Source of the DNA: Trichobilharzia regenti
Taxonomy: Eukaryota > Platyhelminthes > Trematoda > Strigeidida > Schistosomatidae
Reading direction: 5' to 3'
DNA: 64,000 bases
Assembly (NCBI GenBank): GCA_944472135.2
Contig: OX235265.1
Coordinates: 90,180,984-90,244,983, forward strand
The notes beneath the pieces were generated by a model. That model saw nothing but the letters and a program-made list of their open reading frames with translations. It made no database searches and was not told where the DNA came from. Position numbers and translations under genes: made by a program. Every line of letters begins with the position of its first letter. Position 1 is the first letter of the stretch. Positions 8,085-51,937 of this stretch are shown here, one piece after another.

Positions 8085-11000
8085 AAATCATGAAGCCGTG
8101 TGAGTAAACTGACATGATTATAAACAATAAATTGTGCTCGAAACGTTATCCAGTTGTTAATACTACTCAACTGTGTGATAGTTGAAAGAACCTTTATCCA
8201 ATGTGGAATTATATATCCCACCATAGTGCCCCAGTTCTACACACTCACATTAAAGTTGCATACACTTCATTATTTCTGATACGAAAATTAGAGAAATTGT
8301 AACTTGGCAGACTAAGTTCCTAGGACTCAGTAGGTTGGAAGCGAACTTTCATATACCAGTACAAGACAACCCGCCAGTTCCCGACCCAAAGCTGCTACCT
8401 TGACGTGGTGGTCGGGCTTGAACACCGCAATGACCTAATCAAGCTATACTGGCTGAGACTTATGTCTCTTGAGGTTCTACCATGCCAGGCAGGTTGTTTG
8501 GATAGCGGTTAAACAAAAAGCAGCTACCCAATCCAATACCATGTCCAATACAAATTCACAAAATTTCATGCCGGATCGGCCGTGGCCCGGATTAACAACG
8601 ACCGCGCTTCCTGCTGCCGTGTCACAGGGCGGGAGTGATAAGTATGCTACTGAGGCACACCAAACAAAAAAGAACGAACAAAAACAGGCCGCGTGTGACC
8701 GGCCTCAAGCAGTTGTCCCCTGGGCTCTGCGGTCACGCAACCAACTTCCACGGTGTGGGCAGCCGGGAAGTAACAATCGCCCTCACAATCCGAAATGCAC
8801 ACAAAACCTCTCTAATCCTCACTTATCTTTGTCTTCATCTCCATTACCTTGCCTTCCTCCCACTGATGCAACTCCTCTACTTGATGGCTCCTCACTCCCT
8901 CTTCACTCTGTGTCCACTAAAAACGACGAAAGCCAAAAAACCACCACGGATAGTCTCCTAAAGCCACGCCACCAATTTCATATAGGAGCATTTAATGTTA
9001 GGACACTTTGCCAAATAGGACAACAAGCATCACTAGCTAAGACCCTGGCATCTCGAGCCATTGATGTATGTTGTGTTTCAGAAACACGCATACAAGACCC
9101 AAGTGTGGTTATTCACCTAACCCCACCTGGCCAACAGGATGAATCTTCAAAATTCACCTTGAGGGTGTCAGGAGATGCCACAGCTAGTTCACGAGGATTA
9201 GCTGGCGTAGGGATAGCTCTGAGTACTAGGGCAGAAAAGACATTGCTTGACTGGATCCCAGTAGATAGCCGAATGTGTGCTGTCCGTCTGAACGGATCAG
9301 TAAGAAGGAGAAAGGACTGCACTACTCGCCGATGCCTTTTCGTAATCTCCGCCTACGCCCCCACTGACTGCAGTTCGGATGAAACGAAGGATGAGTTCTA
9401 CCAAAAGCTGTCTAGTTTGGTGAGAAAGGCTAAACGCTCAGATATAGTCGTTCTAGCTGGTGACTTTAACGCTCAAGTAGGGAAATTGTGTCAATCTGAG
9501 AAGGATGTCGGTGGCACCTATGGAGTTCCGTGCCAGCGAACCGACAACGGTGACCGTCTCCTACAGTTCTGTTCAGATAATCATTTGTTTCTTGTAAGCA
9601 CTAACTTTAAACACAAGGAGAGACACTGTTTAACCTGGCGACCCCCATCATCAAACCAACGCTGGACACAAATAGACCACATAGCAATAAGCTATCGTTG
9701 GCGTGGGTCGGTAGGAGATTGTCGCTCCTTCTGGAACACGTGTGTAGATACCGATCACGCACTGGTCCGGGCTCGTGTGTGCTTACGACTGAACGGACGT
9801 AGGAAACAGCTGGCGGTAAAACCATCACGTCCCCAGCTCGATCAGGAAACTAAATCCCTATTTGAGGAAGAACTAGCTAAACGCATATCTGAATTCGACA
9901 GCTGTGCTCACCCTGGAGAAGCCTGGAAGAATATTCAGTCAGCTATAGATACAGCTGTAAAAGCTGTGAATAAGGCAAATCCAAAGGTGAGTAAAAACCA
10001 CTGGATTTCGACTGCCTCATCCGAACTGATAGATGCTAGAAGACTTATTCCGGCGAGCTCCGAATTCAATGAGGAGCGAAAGCTGCACAAAAGGAAACTT
10101 ACTAAAAGTCTCCGCAAGGACCGTGAACAGTGGTGGGTGACAAAGGCGAAAGAGATGGAAAAAGCATTGGCGATAGGCAACACTAGGCAACTCTTTAGAC
10201 TCATCACAGAATCGGGTGGGAGAAGGCAATTCATAAGTGAGACTATTTCTGAGAAAAATGGCTCCTTAATTAGCTCTCAGGATAGACGCCTTGAACGCTG
10301 GAAAGAACACTTTGAGGAACAATTTAACTTGCCTACAGCCACACTGAACCTCCCCGCCATCCACCACGTACCCGAATGGGATATAGACACTGGTCCGCCG
10401 TCTGTAGGTGAGGTTACAAAAGCTATCAGTAATTTGAAACGAGGCAAAGCGGCAGGACCCGACGGAATTATTCCGGAGGTGTTTAAATATGGGGGTGACA
10501 TACTAGTTTGTAGATTAACTGAGGTACTAGGCAAAGTCTGGGAATCAGAGACAGTACCATCAGACTGGGGTAAGTCACTTATTATACCGATATTCAAGAA
10601 GGGAAACAAGTCCTCGTGTGATAATCATAGGGGGATCAGCCTAACGAACATAGTCTCTAAAATCCTAGGCTCAGTAATCATGCATAGACTAAGCAGAACT
10701 CGGGAGGAACAGACAAGGGAAAATCAAGCAGGCTTTAGACCAGGTAGAGGGTGCATAGATCATATCTTCACTCTTCGACAGATTCTAGAACATAGACACA
10801 CTTTTCGGCGTCCAACAATTGTCATATTTCTTGACTTGAAGGCGGCCTTCGACTCCGTGGATCGAAAGGTACTATGGCAATGTCTGACTGTGAAGGGAGT
10901 GCCAAGAAAGTACATTGCACTAATCAAGGCACTCTATTCAAACTCACGTAGTCGTGTAAGGGCTTATGGGGAATTGTCATCTGAATTAGTAACAACCAGT

Positions 11001-14000
11001 GGTGTCCGACAGGGATGTCCACTTTCCCCATTTCTGTTTAACTTCATCATAGATATGCTAATGGAAGTATCCTTAACTGAACGTAGTGACTTAGGAATCG
11101 ACTTGTTACCAGGGAATAATCTTATGGACTTAGAATATGCAGATGACATAGTCCTGTTAGGGGAGGATGCTGACAAAATGCAGAGTCTTCTGAACACCTT
11201 GAGCAGCAATCTTCGTATGTTTGGCATGCGATTCGCCCCTGCAAAATGTAAGATGCTGCTACAGGACTGGACGACGTCAACCCCTAACTTAGTGATAGGG
11301 AGTGAAGTGATAGAACATGTTGACCACTTCACCTACTTGGGAAGTTGTATTAGCACCAACGGACTGATTGGCGATGAAATCTCAGCACGGATCCGAAAAG
11401 CTCGAGCTGCTTTCGCTGACTTACACCATCTCTGGCGTAGGCGTGACATCCGGTTATCAACCAAGGGACGTGTGTACTGCTCATCAGTTCGCTCCGTCCT
11501 TCTCTATGGCTCTGAAACATGGCCAATACGCGTTGAAGACATGAAAAGGTTGACTGCTTTCGATCATAGATGTCTGCGATCTCTGTCTCACGTTAGGTGG
11601 TTTCACAAGGTAAGTAATGTTGACGTTAGGCGTAGAGTGTTGGGCAAAGAGGGAAAATCAATCGACGAGGCTATAAAGTTACATAGACTAAGATGGCTAG
11701 GTCACGTGCTGCGCATGCCTAACCACCGCCTCCCCCGACGGGCATTGCTAGCTGATATAGGTTCAGGTTGGAAAAGAGCCAGTGGTGGCCAAACAAAAAC
11801 ATGGCATCAATCCATGAAATCCTTGACAGTTAAACTGAGTCAGGTAGGGAGATGCAGACTCCCGGGTTGGGGCCCTCGGGACTCTAGGAATCAATGGCTG
11901 GAGACAATAGGTGACATGGCTCAAAATCGTTGTCAATGGCGCAGATGTATTCAGTCTCTGTAATCTTTCATATTCCTTTCTACCATTACCCATTCTGTTT
12001 CACTCTTATACTTGTCAAACTCTATTGATTCTCTTCACTCATCTTCTTGTCTACCTCTGTGTGCTATTTGGAACGTGGCAACTCGAACTGCTGCACTTCG
12101 GTGCCAAGTTCTATGTTGAATCCAGACAGACAGACAGACCCGCCAGTTAACCACAGTCTGGCAGGCAAGTCAAGCACCTATGGACTGGTTACAATACAAA
12201 AACGAAGAATAAATTGTTTCCGGTTGTCTGATTGTGACTGACGAATCAGTCAACCCAGAACTTTGGACTCAGAAGGAAGTGTAACAGTGAAGCCTACCAA
12301 GAGTAGATAAAAGAGAAGAGAATAGAAGTGTAGTGATACTAGAGGAAACAATTTTTAAGTATTGGTTTTGTAGGGTTATTTGTTTGATTGCATGAAGGAC
12401 TTCATCATGAGCTGACATCAGCTATAGAACCATTGGAAAACCTGAGAGTACCGGATAGTCAGCTGCTTCGTCTTAGTTTCGGACTCATTAGCAGTACGCA
12501 CCCATCGGGATTTGAGCTCGGGACCATTTAGTTATAAGGCAAGCTTGTACACCATTGAGCCACTGGGACCCAAGCCAATGATCCTTCAATTCTAACTTCT
12601 GCGAATTCACGACATAGCGCGACCATTTCGCAATGTCTTCTTCGATGAGTTACTGCCTCAGCAGGTCCTGGGTTCGAACCCCGCCGGATGCGTACTGCTG
12701 AAGAGTCCCAAACGAAGACGGAACAGTTGTCAAGTATTCCGAGGTTTCCCAGTGGTTCTCTAGCTGATATCAGTTCATGATGAAATCCTCCGTGGAAACA
12801 GAATTGTTTAGGAAAGAGAATAAATTCATGAACACACCGGTTACAGTAAAGAATGGGCATCAAAGCCAAATGACCTTGAAACAACCAATCAGATACCTCA
12901 GCACAGTACAAATAGATGCGCTGTTCGTAATCTTTGTCTCAAATTCCACCTTGATTTGGTCTTTGACTACTATGTGTAGAAAATGGGTTGATAAGAAGGA
13001 CTAAAACATAAACGTGTGGAGGAATAATGACACTGCAGAAATATTGCCGTGTTATTGATAGCTATGCATTCAGGTTTCATATCAGGAAGTTTGTAACAGT
13101 CGGTAAGTTGTACATTATGGTGAGTTTTTAGTTTGTTTCTTCACTACACAGAAACTCCGTCTTAACAAAACATTGTGTATGTGGCCACAATCGGCTACTG
13201 AGACGACCAGTATCTGCTACACAGCTGGAGAAACAGAGAAGATCAAAATCTCAACAGTGCATTGGTACCAACACTGTCGAGGTACTGGCTCACAAAAGAT
13301 CGATGGAATAGAATAACTTCTATACTTGGAGGAATTGATGTTGTCGTTAATATTGACGGAACAGTGCTTATTAAACGTAAACTGAATCCCTGCGGTAGGA
13401 GGAGATAAGCGAACTGTTGGGACTGTGCGATACAAATTTTAAATAAGGGTTAGTAGAACCCATCCCAAACAGCAGTGCCGATGTGTTTTGATACCAAGAA
13501 TACAGCGACTAGTCTTCCCAGGCATTACCAATCATACAGACAAGTGGAGAGGTTATTTGCAACAACCATCATTAGGCTATAATTCTACATAAAGTCATTC
13601 TTCTGAACTGTTGACCATAGTAAGTGGAACACGTACAAATTCTATTAACGGGTCCATCTAAAAAACATATTAGAGTGGTATATGGTTCCCGATAAGATAT
13701 GATATGTAGTCACTTATATGAATGTTTTTTATTGACGTTAGTTTGATATGTCTGTAGAGACACTCTCCTCTATGAGAAACCAGGACCGGATTTTGCAGCA
13801 TATTACAGATACATACCGTTGTTTGTGGTCACAGAGTGAAGATGACTCACTAGCCTGCAGAATAGTACTAACTGTAGTAGAGAAGCAAAATGAGGAAGGT
13901 GATGTGAGTAAAGGAGAATGATGCTCAGGAAGGCTTCGTGTGCTTTTGGAAGTGTGTGGGCGGTTGTTACTTCACAGCTGCCCACACCGTGTAAGTTGAT

Positions 14001-28942: not shown

Positions 28943-31900
28943 TTAATCAAAAGATAATATCTATAAACATGAATTAAACGATAAACTGCACACTAAACTA
29001 CATACAGACAATAATACTACTACAGAAAACCAGTACATAAAAATAATGCTAAATTCTGATGATATTAGATGATGGTTGGAGGAAATCGGCCGGAAACCTT
29101 GCTTGACCTAGGTTTCGTGCCAGTTGGCACTCGTCACCAAGGCATAGCTGGAACCTTGAAGAAACTCATGTCCCTTCTGAGTTCCGGACCGGCGTCACCC
29201 AGTGATGCAGTCAGCAAGGCGTATCTGGAACCGTGAGTTCAGTCCGCACCAAAGAAAAGACTAGACGCATCACATTGTTTACTAGTGTCCAATCAAAGTA
29301 TCCAATGAAGTCCTACAAGAAGTCAATCGAGAGCCACAACAGCTCAGTGATACGTTTCTGACTGCAGTTTTCACTGGATGACGCGGGTTCGAATCTCAAA
29401 AGGGACATGGGTTCCTTTAAGGTTGCAGATATGCCTTGCTGACTGGTGAGTGACAACTAGCACCAAACCTACGTTCAAGGCTTCGTCTCAACGGCCTCCA
29501 ACCATCTAATATTATCAAATCAATGTGCGCTGTGATGGCAAGCTACCTAGAATAGTGGTCATATTGCAAACCTGACTGATAGAATTCAGTTTGTACCAAA
29601 GGACAGTAGTTACTAGTGTCCAATCAAGATGCCAAATTTTGTTAAAAGTGATAACAAAAGGCGGTCTGCTTAAATCATTGGGCTACCAGAGTTGCTTTCC
29701 ACCAAAATGCTTTATTTCATCTGGATTTAGCATTATTTTATTCGTCCAGTCATATCAAATGACCTCCTATACATGAACTTGTGAACTGATTTAACTTGCT
29801 TCCATGTAAACGCTGTACAATTCTTCAATGAAATAAAGATATACTTCAGATTATTACTTTATATATTAATCATGTATGAAGAAAAAAGTATTCTGGAAGT
29901 GAATACGCTGAAAATATTTGTACCATACGTCCTCATATTGTCTGAAATAAAGTGATTCAAGGGCAGAATTTGCTTGCCAGCCAAACACGGGTGGTTAAAG
30001 TTTGATTCTGACCCGACAGTAATCCAGAATCACGTCTGAAACCCTCCTATGTTCCAAAAGTATAAATGAGAATCAGGGTCCTACAATGATCTGTTAGTTT
30101 TTCCCTCTAAATTACCACAACAACCGACAAGAGAAGTTTCTTTCATCAGCGCCTAAATACTACTGGCCGTAATCATCAACACAAGTACGGCAGGTAGAGT
30201 GAGAAGTAGACATTTGTAAAAAACTATATTTGTAAAATCCCAGCGAGATTGAAATGAGTAATTCCAACGCCCGAGATCAAATTTTGACCACAGCTCATAC
30301 TTTATTATACTTGTTGATACTTGTTTTATGACTCACGATTGGACAAAGTTCTTAAAAACAAAAGATGTTGTGGTGAGAGCTGGCTGTTAGTCAAGATTGA
30401 TGGACAGTAATTTACGTCAATGTTTATGTCCTCAATATTGGTCGTGAGAAAAATAAGAACAAAGGCATTGCGTAGGCGGATACAGTTAACATGTGGATGA
30501 TCTGACATTCAAGAAACAGTCACAAAGAAATGCAAGGTTAACTTTCTGTGAGACACAACCAATCAGAAGACTGTTTTTCTGCTAACAATCATCTATAATA
30601 TGTACATGAAAATCTGTAAATATGTGTTGATTTCCTTAATAAACGATCTGTTGCCTGGCCCTTGCCTTCTGTTGTTACAATGTTCCTTTTATATATAAAC
30701 TTCTGTTATTGATGTGGTCACTTCAAATTGAAGTATACGCTGAGGATGTCATCTAGTAGGGCGATGAAAACTTCGCAAATTAACTATACAGCTGTTCAGA
30801 GAACACAACTTCATCCACCTGAGCAACAAATCTTCTCTATCATATTTAAACTAGTGTTATGTTAATTTCAATTAATTTCCTGAAGAAGTTCGGACTAGGT
30901 TGCCGAACGAAACATTGGAATTACTCATTTCAATCTCGATGAAATTTCACAAATGTCTATAAGCACGGGAGTATTAATTCCAGTGGAATCACACGATTCA
31001 GCTAGCTTATCAAGTGGTAATAATATTGCATAACTGCATGAATGATATTTGCGTGCTATTTTAAAAGACAAATCAGCTAAATAATTTCACAATATAGTTT
31101 ATAGGATATAAAACAAATATCACTTTATTCTTTCACCTTCCCAGTAGAATGTAGGGTGGCTTAAAGCTAGAGGCTTGAGGTTTCAATAGCCGTGATGATT
31201 ATTGTTAAGGGATGGGGTTTCTAGCCTCATGCTCAACCTTTCCTCTTTTTATTAGTCTTATCACTGGCCCAGCAAACGAGGTAAAAGAGTGCGTCGGTGG
31301 TTGGGGATCGAACCCGCGATCACATGCGTAATTGGCGAGCATTCCCACCGCTGTGCCAACAACGCACTATAGGAAATAAAACAATCTAGATTTGAAATTC
31401 AGCATTCATATTTAGGAATCCTAGAAATTGAGATAAACACTGTATTATGAGAATGTGAATATAAATGCAGTTGACATATTTAAATGAACCGAAGACTAAG
31501 CAATGAATACACCTTTAATTAATGTAATTACATCCTTTGACCGGTTGAAAAGTTCACAACATTAAAGAATATTCTTTACTTAGCTGAATGACTAAATTGT
31601 GGTGGATGAAAACTAGTGTTTGACTAATATTATGCATCTTTATGATTTCGGGGGGAACACACGGCTTTCGAAGTACATTCGATATTTCACAGTGTACTTT
31701 ACGGTCATTTTTAGCCTGTTCCATGACTGACCATAAGCTTTTCACGAACGATCCTCCTCTTCATGTGACCCTCGGAAGTATGCCCAACTTGTCACTGCCC
31801 CTTCGGGTCACACTCGACGATCTGTCTGGCGTATGATGTCATTCAAATAAATATCACCAGTTTCTCCTGTATAGTTGATGGGAAAGAGGTTCTTGGTTGG

Positions 31901-48800: not shown

Positions 48801-51800
48801 CCAACGCATCTGTAGTCCCGATGTTCTAGAAACAGAATTAGATCTTTTGAAAGAAATCACCCAAAATGGATACCCACCAAGATTCATTGACAAAAATATC
48901 AAACCAAGAATTCGAAGAAATGAAACTTCACTTGCGCCTAAAAAGAAACTCTACATGAACTTGGATTTGAATGGAGATTTAACAAGCGATATTCTCAAGA
49001 GAAGGATCGCAACCCTAAGAATAGTGCTCTCGAGTCCCCCACTGATATACAGAAGCCTTAAGGACAAGATCTCGCATCCGACCACTTATCTGTGCATATA
49101 TCAGTTTACCTGCTGTTGTGGAGCCAGGTACATCGACCGTTCAACGCACAACCTGTCAAAGAGGATTCAAGAACACTATCCAACATGGTTGCGAAAAGGC
49201 AATACTGATGCGATAAGGAGTGCGACAATTGAATACCTGGTTAACACCGATCATTCCATTTTAACAAACGCCTCCTTCAAATTGATCTACAGAGTCAACA
49301 ATAACCTACCAAAGGCAATACGGTTTCGTCTTCTTTGTATTGCTGAAGCACTTGTCATTGACACAGAAAAACCGAAGCTGTGCATACAAAAGGAAATTAC
49401 TCAACCATTTCTACTATCATGGCAATAAATGTTTGCTTGTTTCTTTAAATGCTAATAATTCCTGAATACATTTAGAACTCTTATGTAATTTCGTATTCTC
49501 CACTTTGTTTCTATGTGCACTCTGAGTACAACTCAATCATCAAATTATTCGTATTATTACGTAACTCCTTTTTAACACTTGTTTGTGACAACTCATCACC
49601 TCTGTTACTACCGTAGTTTCATTAACACCCAATTTTCTTGACCAATTTTATAATACGTAACTCCACCCTAAACTTACTTATTCTCACGTGTTTTTAGTTT
49701 AAAATAACCAAAACCATTTGTACGTATTTCTGTTTGACAAACTTAATGTACACATATATATACAGCTAAGAAAATGAATTCGCCGAAAAAAGAAACTGCG
49801 CTGAACTACATGTTTTGTTTCCATTAATGCCTGGATGGGGATTATTCATGAATTGATTGATAAGTGGATAAAACTGAAATCACTGTTCCAAGTTAATAGC
49901 TAGAGAGGTAGAGGTATTTATTTTTCAAATCTGGACAGCTAGCTGGTTTAACCTTGGGTCAATAGCCACCCAATTAGAGCAATTTATTCTCCTCTGACCT
50001 AGACAACCTTCAATGTGTTTAGGAATGTAAAAATATTTTTCCTTTATAAGGATCCATTACCAAGTCTATTACCTTCTCCTCCCGTTACAACACTTATACC
50101 TGTGTGAAACACACTGTATTTTCAGTTAAAAAAAACCCTTATAATAAATGTACGTCGAATTATGTATGTATATATAACTCACCAAGGACCATATAGGGTA
50201 CATCAACAATTCCAACTACACCACGGCACATCATACTAGAATCTTGTTGTGGCCCAATCCGTTGGTACATTTTGATTAAACGAGAACAATTATAGACAAA
50301 CATACCATCACAAGCACGATTCATAACATTTACACCGAAATAAAATGTAAGCGTCTTAGGATCCTTGATTGATTTTGATTTTCTTGCAACAATATTTTGT
50401 TTCATTTCCACAGCTGAACGTAGCTCAGCAGCAGCATTTCGAAGACGACGTATTTGACGCTGAAAGGAAATAACGTGAGAAAAATAATGACGATGATCAT
50501 ATTTCATAGTTGAAGTCTACAAACTTTTAAAAAAAAGAAAATTTAGCCGGCAGACACATTTACGTAGTTAACACAATCACTAGTTCTGAAAAAACTTTAA
50601 CCAATACACTACAATCATCAGGAAGCCTTGGATCGACCTAGGTTTCGTGAATCGCGAATTCAGCATCTTGTGGGAATGGTGCAGATGGAAATTCAGTCAG
50701 ATATTTCGAAATCAACAGAAAGATTAACCAGCAAACAAAGTGCTTCCAAATCGAAAAACGAAGACAATTCTTCGTTGACAGGGTTACCTGGATTGCTTTA
50801 CATAGGCAAAATGGGTAGATTAAGTCTGCGTCAGATCACAGTGTTTATTGAGGATTTATGCTGTGAAGAAGCGCGTTGGTGTCTAAGCGTAATAACTTGT
50901 GGTGGTGTAGAAAGGCGAAGAAGAATACACTTATCTTATGCTTCAATTGTATTAGCTATGTTTTATTTGTCTAATTCAGGCAGTCTGTCTACAGTTCAGT
51001 TATTTGAGGCTTAATACCATTGTAATACTCTCTGACGCAGTGGAATCCCTCGGTATGATTTATGACTTATATGGCGGGCGTTTCAACTGTTGCTCTTTAC
51101 AATCTTTCAAATCGTTTCTCTTGCAACAACTGAACTGCAATAGAGTGGTTACAAACTATACACTTAATGTCTGACAATTCTCATAGTGTAGCTTTAAAAA
51201 CTCATCAACTGAACTTACCCATCTTGCCTTGTGTTGTGAAGCTACACTATGAGAATTGTCAGACATTAAGTGTATAGTTTGTAACCACTCTATTGCAGTT
51301 CAGTTGTTGCAAGAGAAACGATTTGAAAGATTGTAAAGAGCAACAGTTGAAACGCCCGCCATATAAGTCATAAATCATACCGAGGGATTCCACTGCGTCA
51401 GAGAGTATTACAATGGTATTAAGCCTCAAATAACTGAACTGTAGACAGACTGCCTGAATTAGACAAATAAAACATAGCTAATACAACTGAAGCATAAGAT
51501 AAGTGTATTCTTCTTCGCCTTTCTACACCACCACAAGTTATTACGCTTAGACACCAACGCGCTTCTTCACAGCATAAATCCTCAATAAACACTGTGATCT
51601 GACGCAGACTTAATCTACCCATTTTGCCTATGTAAAGCAATCCAGGTAACCCTGTCAACGAAGAATTGTCTTCGTTTTTCGATTTGGAAGCACTTTGTTT
51701 GCTGGTTAATCTTTCTGTTGATTTCGAAATATCTGACTGAATTTCCATCTGCACCATTCCACAAGATGCTGAATTCGCGATTCACGAAACCTAGGTCGAT

Positions 51801-51896
51801 CCAAGGCTTCCTGATGATTGTAGTGTATTGGTTAAATTTTTTTCAGAACTAGTGATTGTGTTAACTAACCTTAGCTGGTATACAACCAAATGCAAA

Positions 51897-51937
<41 letters not shown>

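What the first reader, a model, noticed from the sequence alone, without database searches (positions are those of the whole stretch)
50568..51864. 1.3-kb near-perfect palindrome with TTAA ends inside intron 9 of the MORC2-like gene
Two arms of about 627 bp, separated by 44 bp, differ at only a handful of positions, and each carries the same 112-codon open frame. TTAA plus CACAATC at both termini fits a piggyBac-type terminal repeat and target, but the whole element being one hairpin is unusual. Arms this alike are either very young or kept alike by gene conversion. Transcribed with the gene, the intron would fold into a long dsRNA hairpin, a possible source of siRNA or an editing target. The protein family is not one I know.
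Basis: partly seen in the sequence, partly recalled or inferred. Interest (0 to 1): 0.86.

Follow-up and report, generated by a model that had tools for sequence, protein, structure and literature searches.

The report
Single-copy palindrome in fluke MORC intron
A flatworm gene carries in one intron a 1.3-kb, almost perfect mirror-image (hairpin-forming) DNA segment that a search found nowhere else in its genome assembly, most likely a recent local inverted duplication rather than a piggyBac transposon.

Summary
The palindrome is real: arms 50565-51194 and 51239-51867 (630 and 629 bp, 3 differences) around a 44-bp loop, filling 1.3 kb of a 1.5-kb intron of a MORC-family gene. The piggyBac reading is not supported. 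In the 954-Mb own genome the arm DNA matches only itself; the same search with a real long-TIR repeat gave 4512 candidates. No other place matches the 24-base terminus with fewer than two mismatches, and the best outside match reads TCAA instead of TTAA. Arm identity runs 3 bp past TTAA. In 200 kb of sampled genome I found another long inverted duplication of single-copy DNA (L012) and a probable in-place template-switch product (L023), so such local events may not be rare here. I favour a young in-place inverted duplication (0.5) over a last surviving foldback/TA-target transposon (0.33), which two weak terminus matches keep alive. The 112-codon frame is intact in both arms but has no detected homologue and only weak coding character. 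RNA would form a nearly fully paired hairpin; with no matching target found, a trans-acting siRNA role is unlikely. No reads, relatives or empty site could be examined.

The parts
50565..51194 (+). left arm of the palindrome
51195..51238. 44-bp loop (34 bp if the imperfect inner ends are counted as arm, as)
51239..51867 (-). right arm of the palindrome, inverted copy of the left arm
50568..50571 (.). TTAA near the left edge; arm identity extends 3 bp further out
51861..51864 (.). TTAA near the right edge; arm identity extends 3 bp further out
50601..51014 (+). 137-codon stop-to-stop frame in the left arm (112 codons from the ATG at 50676); no homologue found; weak coding character
51419..51781 (-). 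same frame in the right arm, 120 codons stop to stop, 112 from ATG; the one-base difference shifts the frame only upstream of the ATG
50611..50643 (+). about 30 bp resembling the edge of a dispersed repeat seen in L013 and L015; weaker or unaligned matches at window 29084-29119 and L034
50460..51958 (-). host intron of the MORC-like gene; edges read by eye from splice consensus and reading frame

Best explanation
A young local inverted duplication of single-copy intronic DNA. During replication or break repair the new strand folded back or switched template, copied about 630 bp backwards, then resumed, leaving arm, loop and inverted arm in the MORC intron. Shown: the palindrome, no other copy in the assembly under the searches used, its intronic place, and one other long inverted duplication of single-copy DNA elsewhere in this genome. 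Inferred: the copying mechanism, which arm is original, and youth rather than homogenisation by gene conversion. When the gene is transcribed, the intron should form a dsRNA hairpin of about 630 bp that acts, if at all, only in cis (splicing, A-to-I editing, siRNA from the intron itself).
For: Arm DNA finds only its two own copies in 954 Mb (1 candidate in the first look), while a real long-TIR repeat arm gives 4512 candidates (40 scored). The protein search gives 5 matches at E up to 10: three are the arms, two are marginal. In 308 kb examined, 27 of 30 inverted pairs have other copies in that sample and 3 do not: this one, L012:2404-4841 and L023:8065-8316. L012's 780-bp, 98% identical arms are the only two matches genome-wide, with no target duplication that I could see by eye at their edges. 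L023 repeats its own left flank once inverted and once more direct, as an in-place template switch would; its copy number was tested only in the sample. Short-range template switching is reported as widespread in great apes (PMC7954356, abstract and outline seen).
Against: Both edges show TA and TTAA, as a target duplication would. Flanks and palindrome share no word of 9 bp or more, and I saw no microhomology at the junctions. L031 shares 27 bp with two mismatches starting exactly at the arm edge. Two 22-base matches with three mismatches each lie 3.6 kb apart in inverted order at L037. Both hint at a recurring terminus. The edges are sharper than those of L012. Long-TIR repeats of transposon type are far commoner here than single-copy pairs (27 of 30).
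Confidence: 0.5

Rival explanations
1. A single surviving non-autonomous foldback (long terminal inverted repeat) DNA transposon, inserted at a TA dinucleotide (edge TA|GTTAACACAATC) or, less likely, at TTAA, moved by a transposase whose source is lost or not recognised.
For: TA and TTAA at both edges; joining the flanks gives a plausible 10-bp palindromic empty site TAGTTAACTA; L031 matches 27 bp from the exact edge, by my hand estimate about 0.002 expected by chance, the length being chosen after the fact; the L037 inverted pair 3.6 kb apart, about 0.0005 by hand, also after the fact.
Against: 24-base terminus with up to 3 mismatches: 4 places, two of them the element itself, the others L031 (2 mismatches) and L032 (3), reversed-pattern control 1. 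22-base pattern, up to 3 mismatches: 23 places, two of them the element, control 14. 27-base degenerate pattern made with L031 and L037 in view: 4 places, namely the element's two ends, L031 and L037-left, control 0. L031 showed no inverted partner in the 20 kb around it and its motif lies in no repeat seen in the sample. L037 has no frame longer than 93 codons. No further match within 6 mismatches occurs in the 308-kb sample beyond loci fetched for their match. A young element should have left relatives.
Confidence: 0.33
2. A captured gene fragment or alternative terminal exon turned into a hairpin: the open frame is a real last exon, and the hairpin could make siRNA against its parent or against MORC transcripts.
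For: 137-codon frame, a length reached in 0.3% and 1.2% of 3000 simulations under two Markov models; the frame scores best of six for codon use, though a stop-free frame is favoured by that measure; a possible splice acceptor precedes it (by eye); the 112-codon frame is intact in both arms.
Against: No parent found in the genome; no Pfam match; no protein match, although that search sees only proteins of similar length; codon score ranks the two frames 29th and 31st of 66 long frames, or 29th and 36th with MORC exons added to the training; the frame leading from the possible acceptor is shifted in the arm that is sense to the gene.
Confidence: 0.1
3. Assembly or library artefact (fold-back chimera).
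For: Such chimeras make perfect inverted repeats (general knowledge).
Against: Unique flanks on both sides keep the gene's exon order, the arms differ at three places, the loop is asymmetric, and the contig is 108 Mb long.
Confidence: 0.05

Closest known systems
Local inverted duplication by template switching or fold-back priming
   Same: Inverted copy beside the original, single-copy arms, short loop; in-genome parallels L012 and L023.
   Different: Long arms for a short-range event (recalled); no microhomology seen; edges carry TA/TTAA.
Foldback transposons such as Tetris of Drosophila virilis (PMC4079207, abstract and outline seen)
   Same: Inverted repeats make up nearly the whole unit, no transposase gene recognised.
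   Different: Tetris is a family that shares its terminal ends with another element, DAIBAM; here no other copy was found and terminus relatives are doubtful.
piggyBac-type elements (TTAA target; recalled)
   Same: TTAA close to both edges.
   Different: No recognised transposase in the unit, no family found, repeat runs past TTAA, nearest outside terminus lacks TTAA.
Mu killer of maize (PMC3440606, abstract and outline seen)
   Same: An inverted duplication read through from a flanking gene could form a long hairpin RNA.
   Different: Mu killer has a target (mudrA); no matching target of these arms was found in this genome.

Membership tests
piggyBac-type transposon | TTAA target duplication exactly at the ends | tested here: inconclusive
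   TTAA present at both ends, but arm identity extends 3 bp beyond; no empty site available
piggyBac-type transposon | relatives sharing the termini | tested here: not met
   only L031 (TCAA, not TTAA), L032 and L037 as weak matches
piggyBac-type transposon | a transposase of that family in the unit or genome | not tested
   the frame has no Pfam match; the genome search for the family did not complete
foldback / TA-target DNA transposon | long inverted repeats making up most of the unit | tested here: met
foldback / TA-target DNA transposon | dispersed copies or shared termini | tested here: inconclusive
   no other copy of the arm; weak terminus matches L031 and L037
local inverted duplication | inverted arms of otherwise single-copy DNA | tested here: met
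   against the repeat control
local inverted duplication | one arm ancestral at the locus | not testable with these tools
   the genome has no relatives in the tool (stated)
hairpin-RNA (hpRNA) locus | foldable transcript | tested here: met
   predicted fold only; transcription not tested
hairpin-RNA (hpRNA) locus | complementary target elsewhere | tested here: not met
   short partial targets were not sought
hairpin-RNA (hpRNA) locus | siRNA reads | not testable with these tools
   no read data

The most novel reading that the evidence does not exclude
The intron carries a self-acting dsRNA switch: a hairpin kept near-perfect by gene conversion inside a MORC gene, a family with silencing roles (recalled), that is diced or edited in the germline and feeds back on the host gene's own splicing or level.
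Probability: 0.05. Interest if true: 0.75.

Novelty: new member of a known kind. Interest (0 to 1): 0.3.

Why it matters
Palindromes with arms of hundreds of bases and short loops are unstable in many organisms (recalled). If this schistosomatid-like genome holds many single-copy inverted duplications (in 200 kb sampled, one confirmed single-copy genome-wide and one likely), it would be a good place to study how long palindromes form and persist and how introns tolerate long dsRNA. As a single locus it is mainly a curiosity.

Tried and rejected
Kleisin (cohesin-type) C-terminus for the open frame: an idea from a recalled pattern only; no Pfam match up to E 10 and no kleisin among the 21 hits. 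That call's best rows (E 4e-7, designed armadillo repeat proteins) are sums of repeated 4-6 bit matches, none passing alone; I took them as chance. AlphaFold on the single sequence gave mean pLDDT 41, so no fold search was run. Viral contigs: 11 stretches matched a pattern, none encoded a relative. The four Rfam microRNA rows lie below the gathering scores and reflect the perfect hairpin and the AT repeat. L006 and L007 (E 0.04 and 3.1) judged chance; tblastn did not recover them. The search with window:51012-51233 did not complete, nor was pattern AATCACTAGTTCTGAAA or family PF13843. In one search the training frame was wrong; one search replaces it.

Full report
Observation. The palindrome is present as described. 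Arm identity starts at 50565 and ends at 51867; arms of 630 and 629 bp surround a 44-bp loop and differ at three places. The minus-strand RNA folds into one hairpin. It lies between exons with Morc6_S5 matches; I read by eye exon edges at about 51959 and 50459, compatible with one phase-0 intron, so the palindrome makes up about 1.3 of 1.5 kb.

Organism. The reverse-transcriptase frame elsewhere in the window is 70% identical to a Schistosoma protein over 85% of its length, so the genome is schistosomatid-like; the species is not known. The same call shows that the protein collection holds fluke proteins. That search considers only proteins of 0.55 to 1.75 times the query length, so a long protein with this frame as its last exon is not excluded.

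Copy number. The left arm as DNA finds only the two arms in 954 Mb (1 candidate in the first look). As protein it gives 5 matches at E up to 10: three in the arms and two marginal ones at E 0.04 and 3.1. The same DNA search with a known repeat arm (L022) gave 4512 candidates, of which 40 were scored. The tool warns that very common words are skipped and that no match does not prove rarity. Terminal patterns gave few matches. With 24 bases and up to 3 mismatches there were 4 places: the element's two ends, L031 (2 mismatches) and L032 (3), control 1. With 22 bases and up to 3 mismatches there were 23 places, two of them the element, control 14. With 27 degenerate bases and up to 3 mismatches there were 4 places: the two ends, L031 and L037-left, control 0, the pattern having been made with L031 and L037 in view. 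In the 308-kb sample the matches within 6 mismatches are the two ends and four places in loci that I had fetched for their matches; shuffled patterns averaged 0.9.

Base rate. One search listed 30 inverted pairs (span of match at least 101 bp, E up to 1e-15, gap under 2500 bp) in 308 kb: 200 kb on a fixed grid of 20 stretches, the window, and 44 kb fetched because of pattern hits. Of these, 27 have other copies in the same sample and 3 do not: this palindrome, L012:2404-4841 and L023:8065-8316. L012 is single-copy genome-wide. L023 was tested only within the sample; its left flank occurs twice forward and once reversed, which an in-place template switch explains well. So unique-sequence inverted duplications may not be rare here, but two cases give no precise rate.

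Transposon or local duplication. TA and TTAA at the edges, the edge-exact 27-bp match at L031 and the inverted pair at L037 favour a transposon. The lack of any clear family, the internal stretch resembling a dispersed repeat edge, and the two parallels favour local duplication. My chance estimates for L031 (about 0.002) and the L037 pair (about 0.0005) were worked by hand and after the fact. They keep the transposon reading alive but do not carry it. If L031 is a relative, it speaks for a TA edge and against TTAA, because it reads TCAA there. Whether piggyBac transposases exist in the genome was not tested: searches did not complete.

Open frame. The 112-codon frame is intact in both arms. 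The 137-codon stop-to-stop length is reached in 0.3% and 1.2% of 3000 simulations under two Markov models, and in 33 of 317 window tiles, 16 of which overlap the reverse-transcriptase frame and 2 the arm itself. Codon scores favour its frame over the other five, but rank the right-arm and left-arm frames 29th and 31st of 66 long frames (29th and 36th with MORC exons added). It may be chance or an old coding remnant.

Function. Most likely none beyond a hairpin in the intron RNA. With no matching target found, trans silencing is unlikely; effects on the host transcript are possible and untested. Three differences in about 630 bp mean youth or gene conversion; these cannot be separated here.

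Literature. Seen: search listings with abstract beginnings and abstracts with outlines of PMC3440606, PMC7954356 and PMC4079207. I noticed no report of this locus in those listings and make no wider claim of absence from print.

Noticed in passing
L012:2404-4841 (G000 C1:40002404-40004841): 780-bp arms, 98% identical, 879-bp loop, no other match genome-wide; differences seem denser near the outer edge, as gene conversion of the middle might leave.
   Followed up: partly
L023:8041-8316: Compact structure in which the left flank is repeated inverted and then direct around a short spacer, as an in-place template switch would leave.
   Followed up: partly
   Followed up: no
window 8457-11960 (+): 1168-codon uninterrupted endonuclease-reverse transcriptase frame, 70% identical to a Schistosoma protein: a possibly young non-LTR element.
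   Followed up: partly
window 51900-51935: (AT)18 repeat 32 bp from the right edge of the palindrome; such tracts can be fragile (recalled).
   Followed up: no
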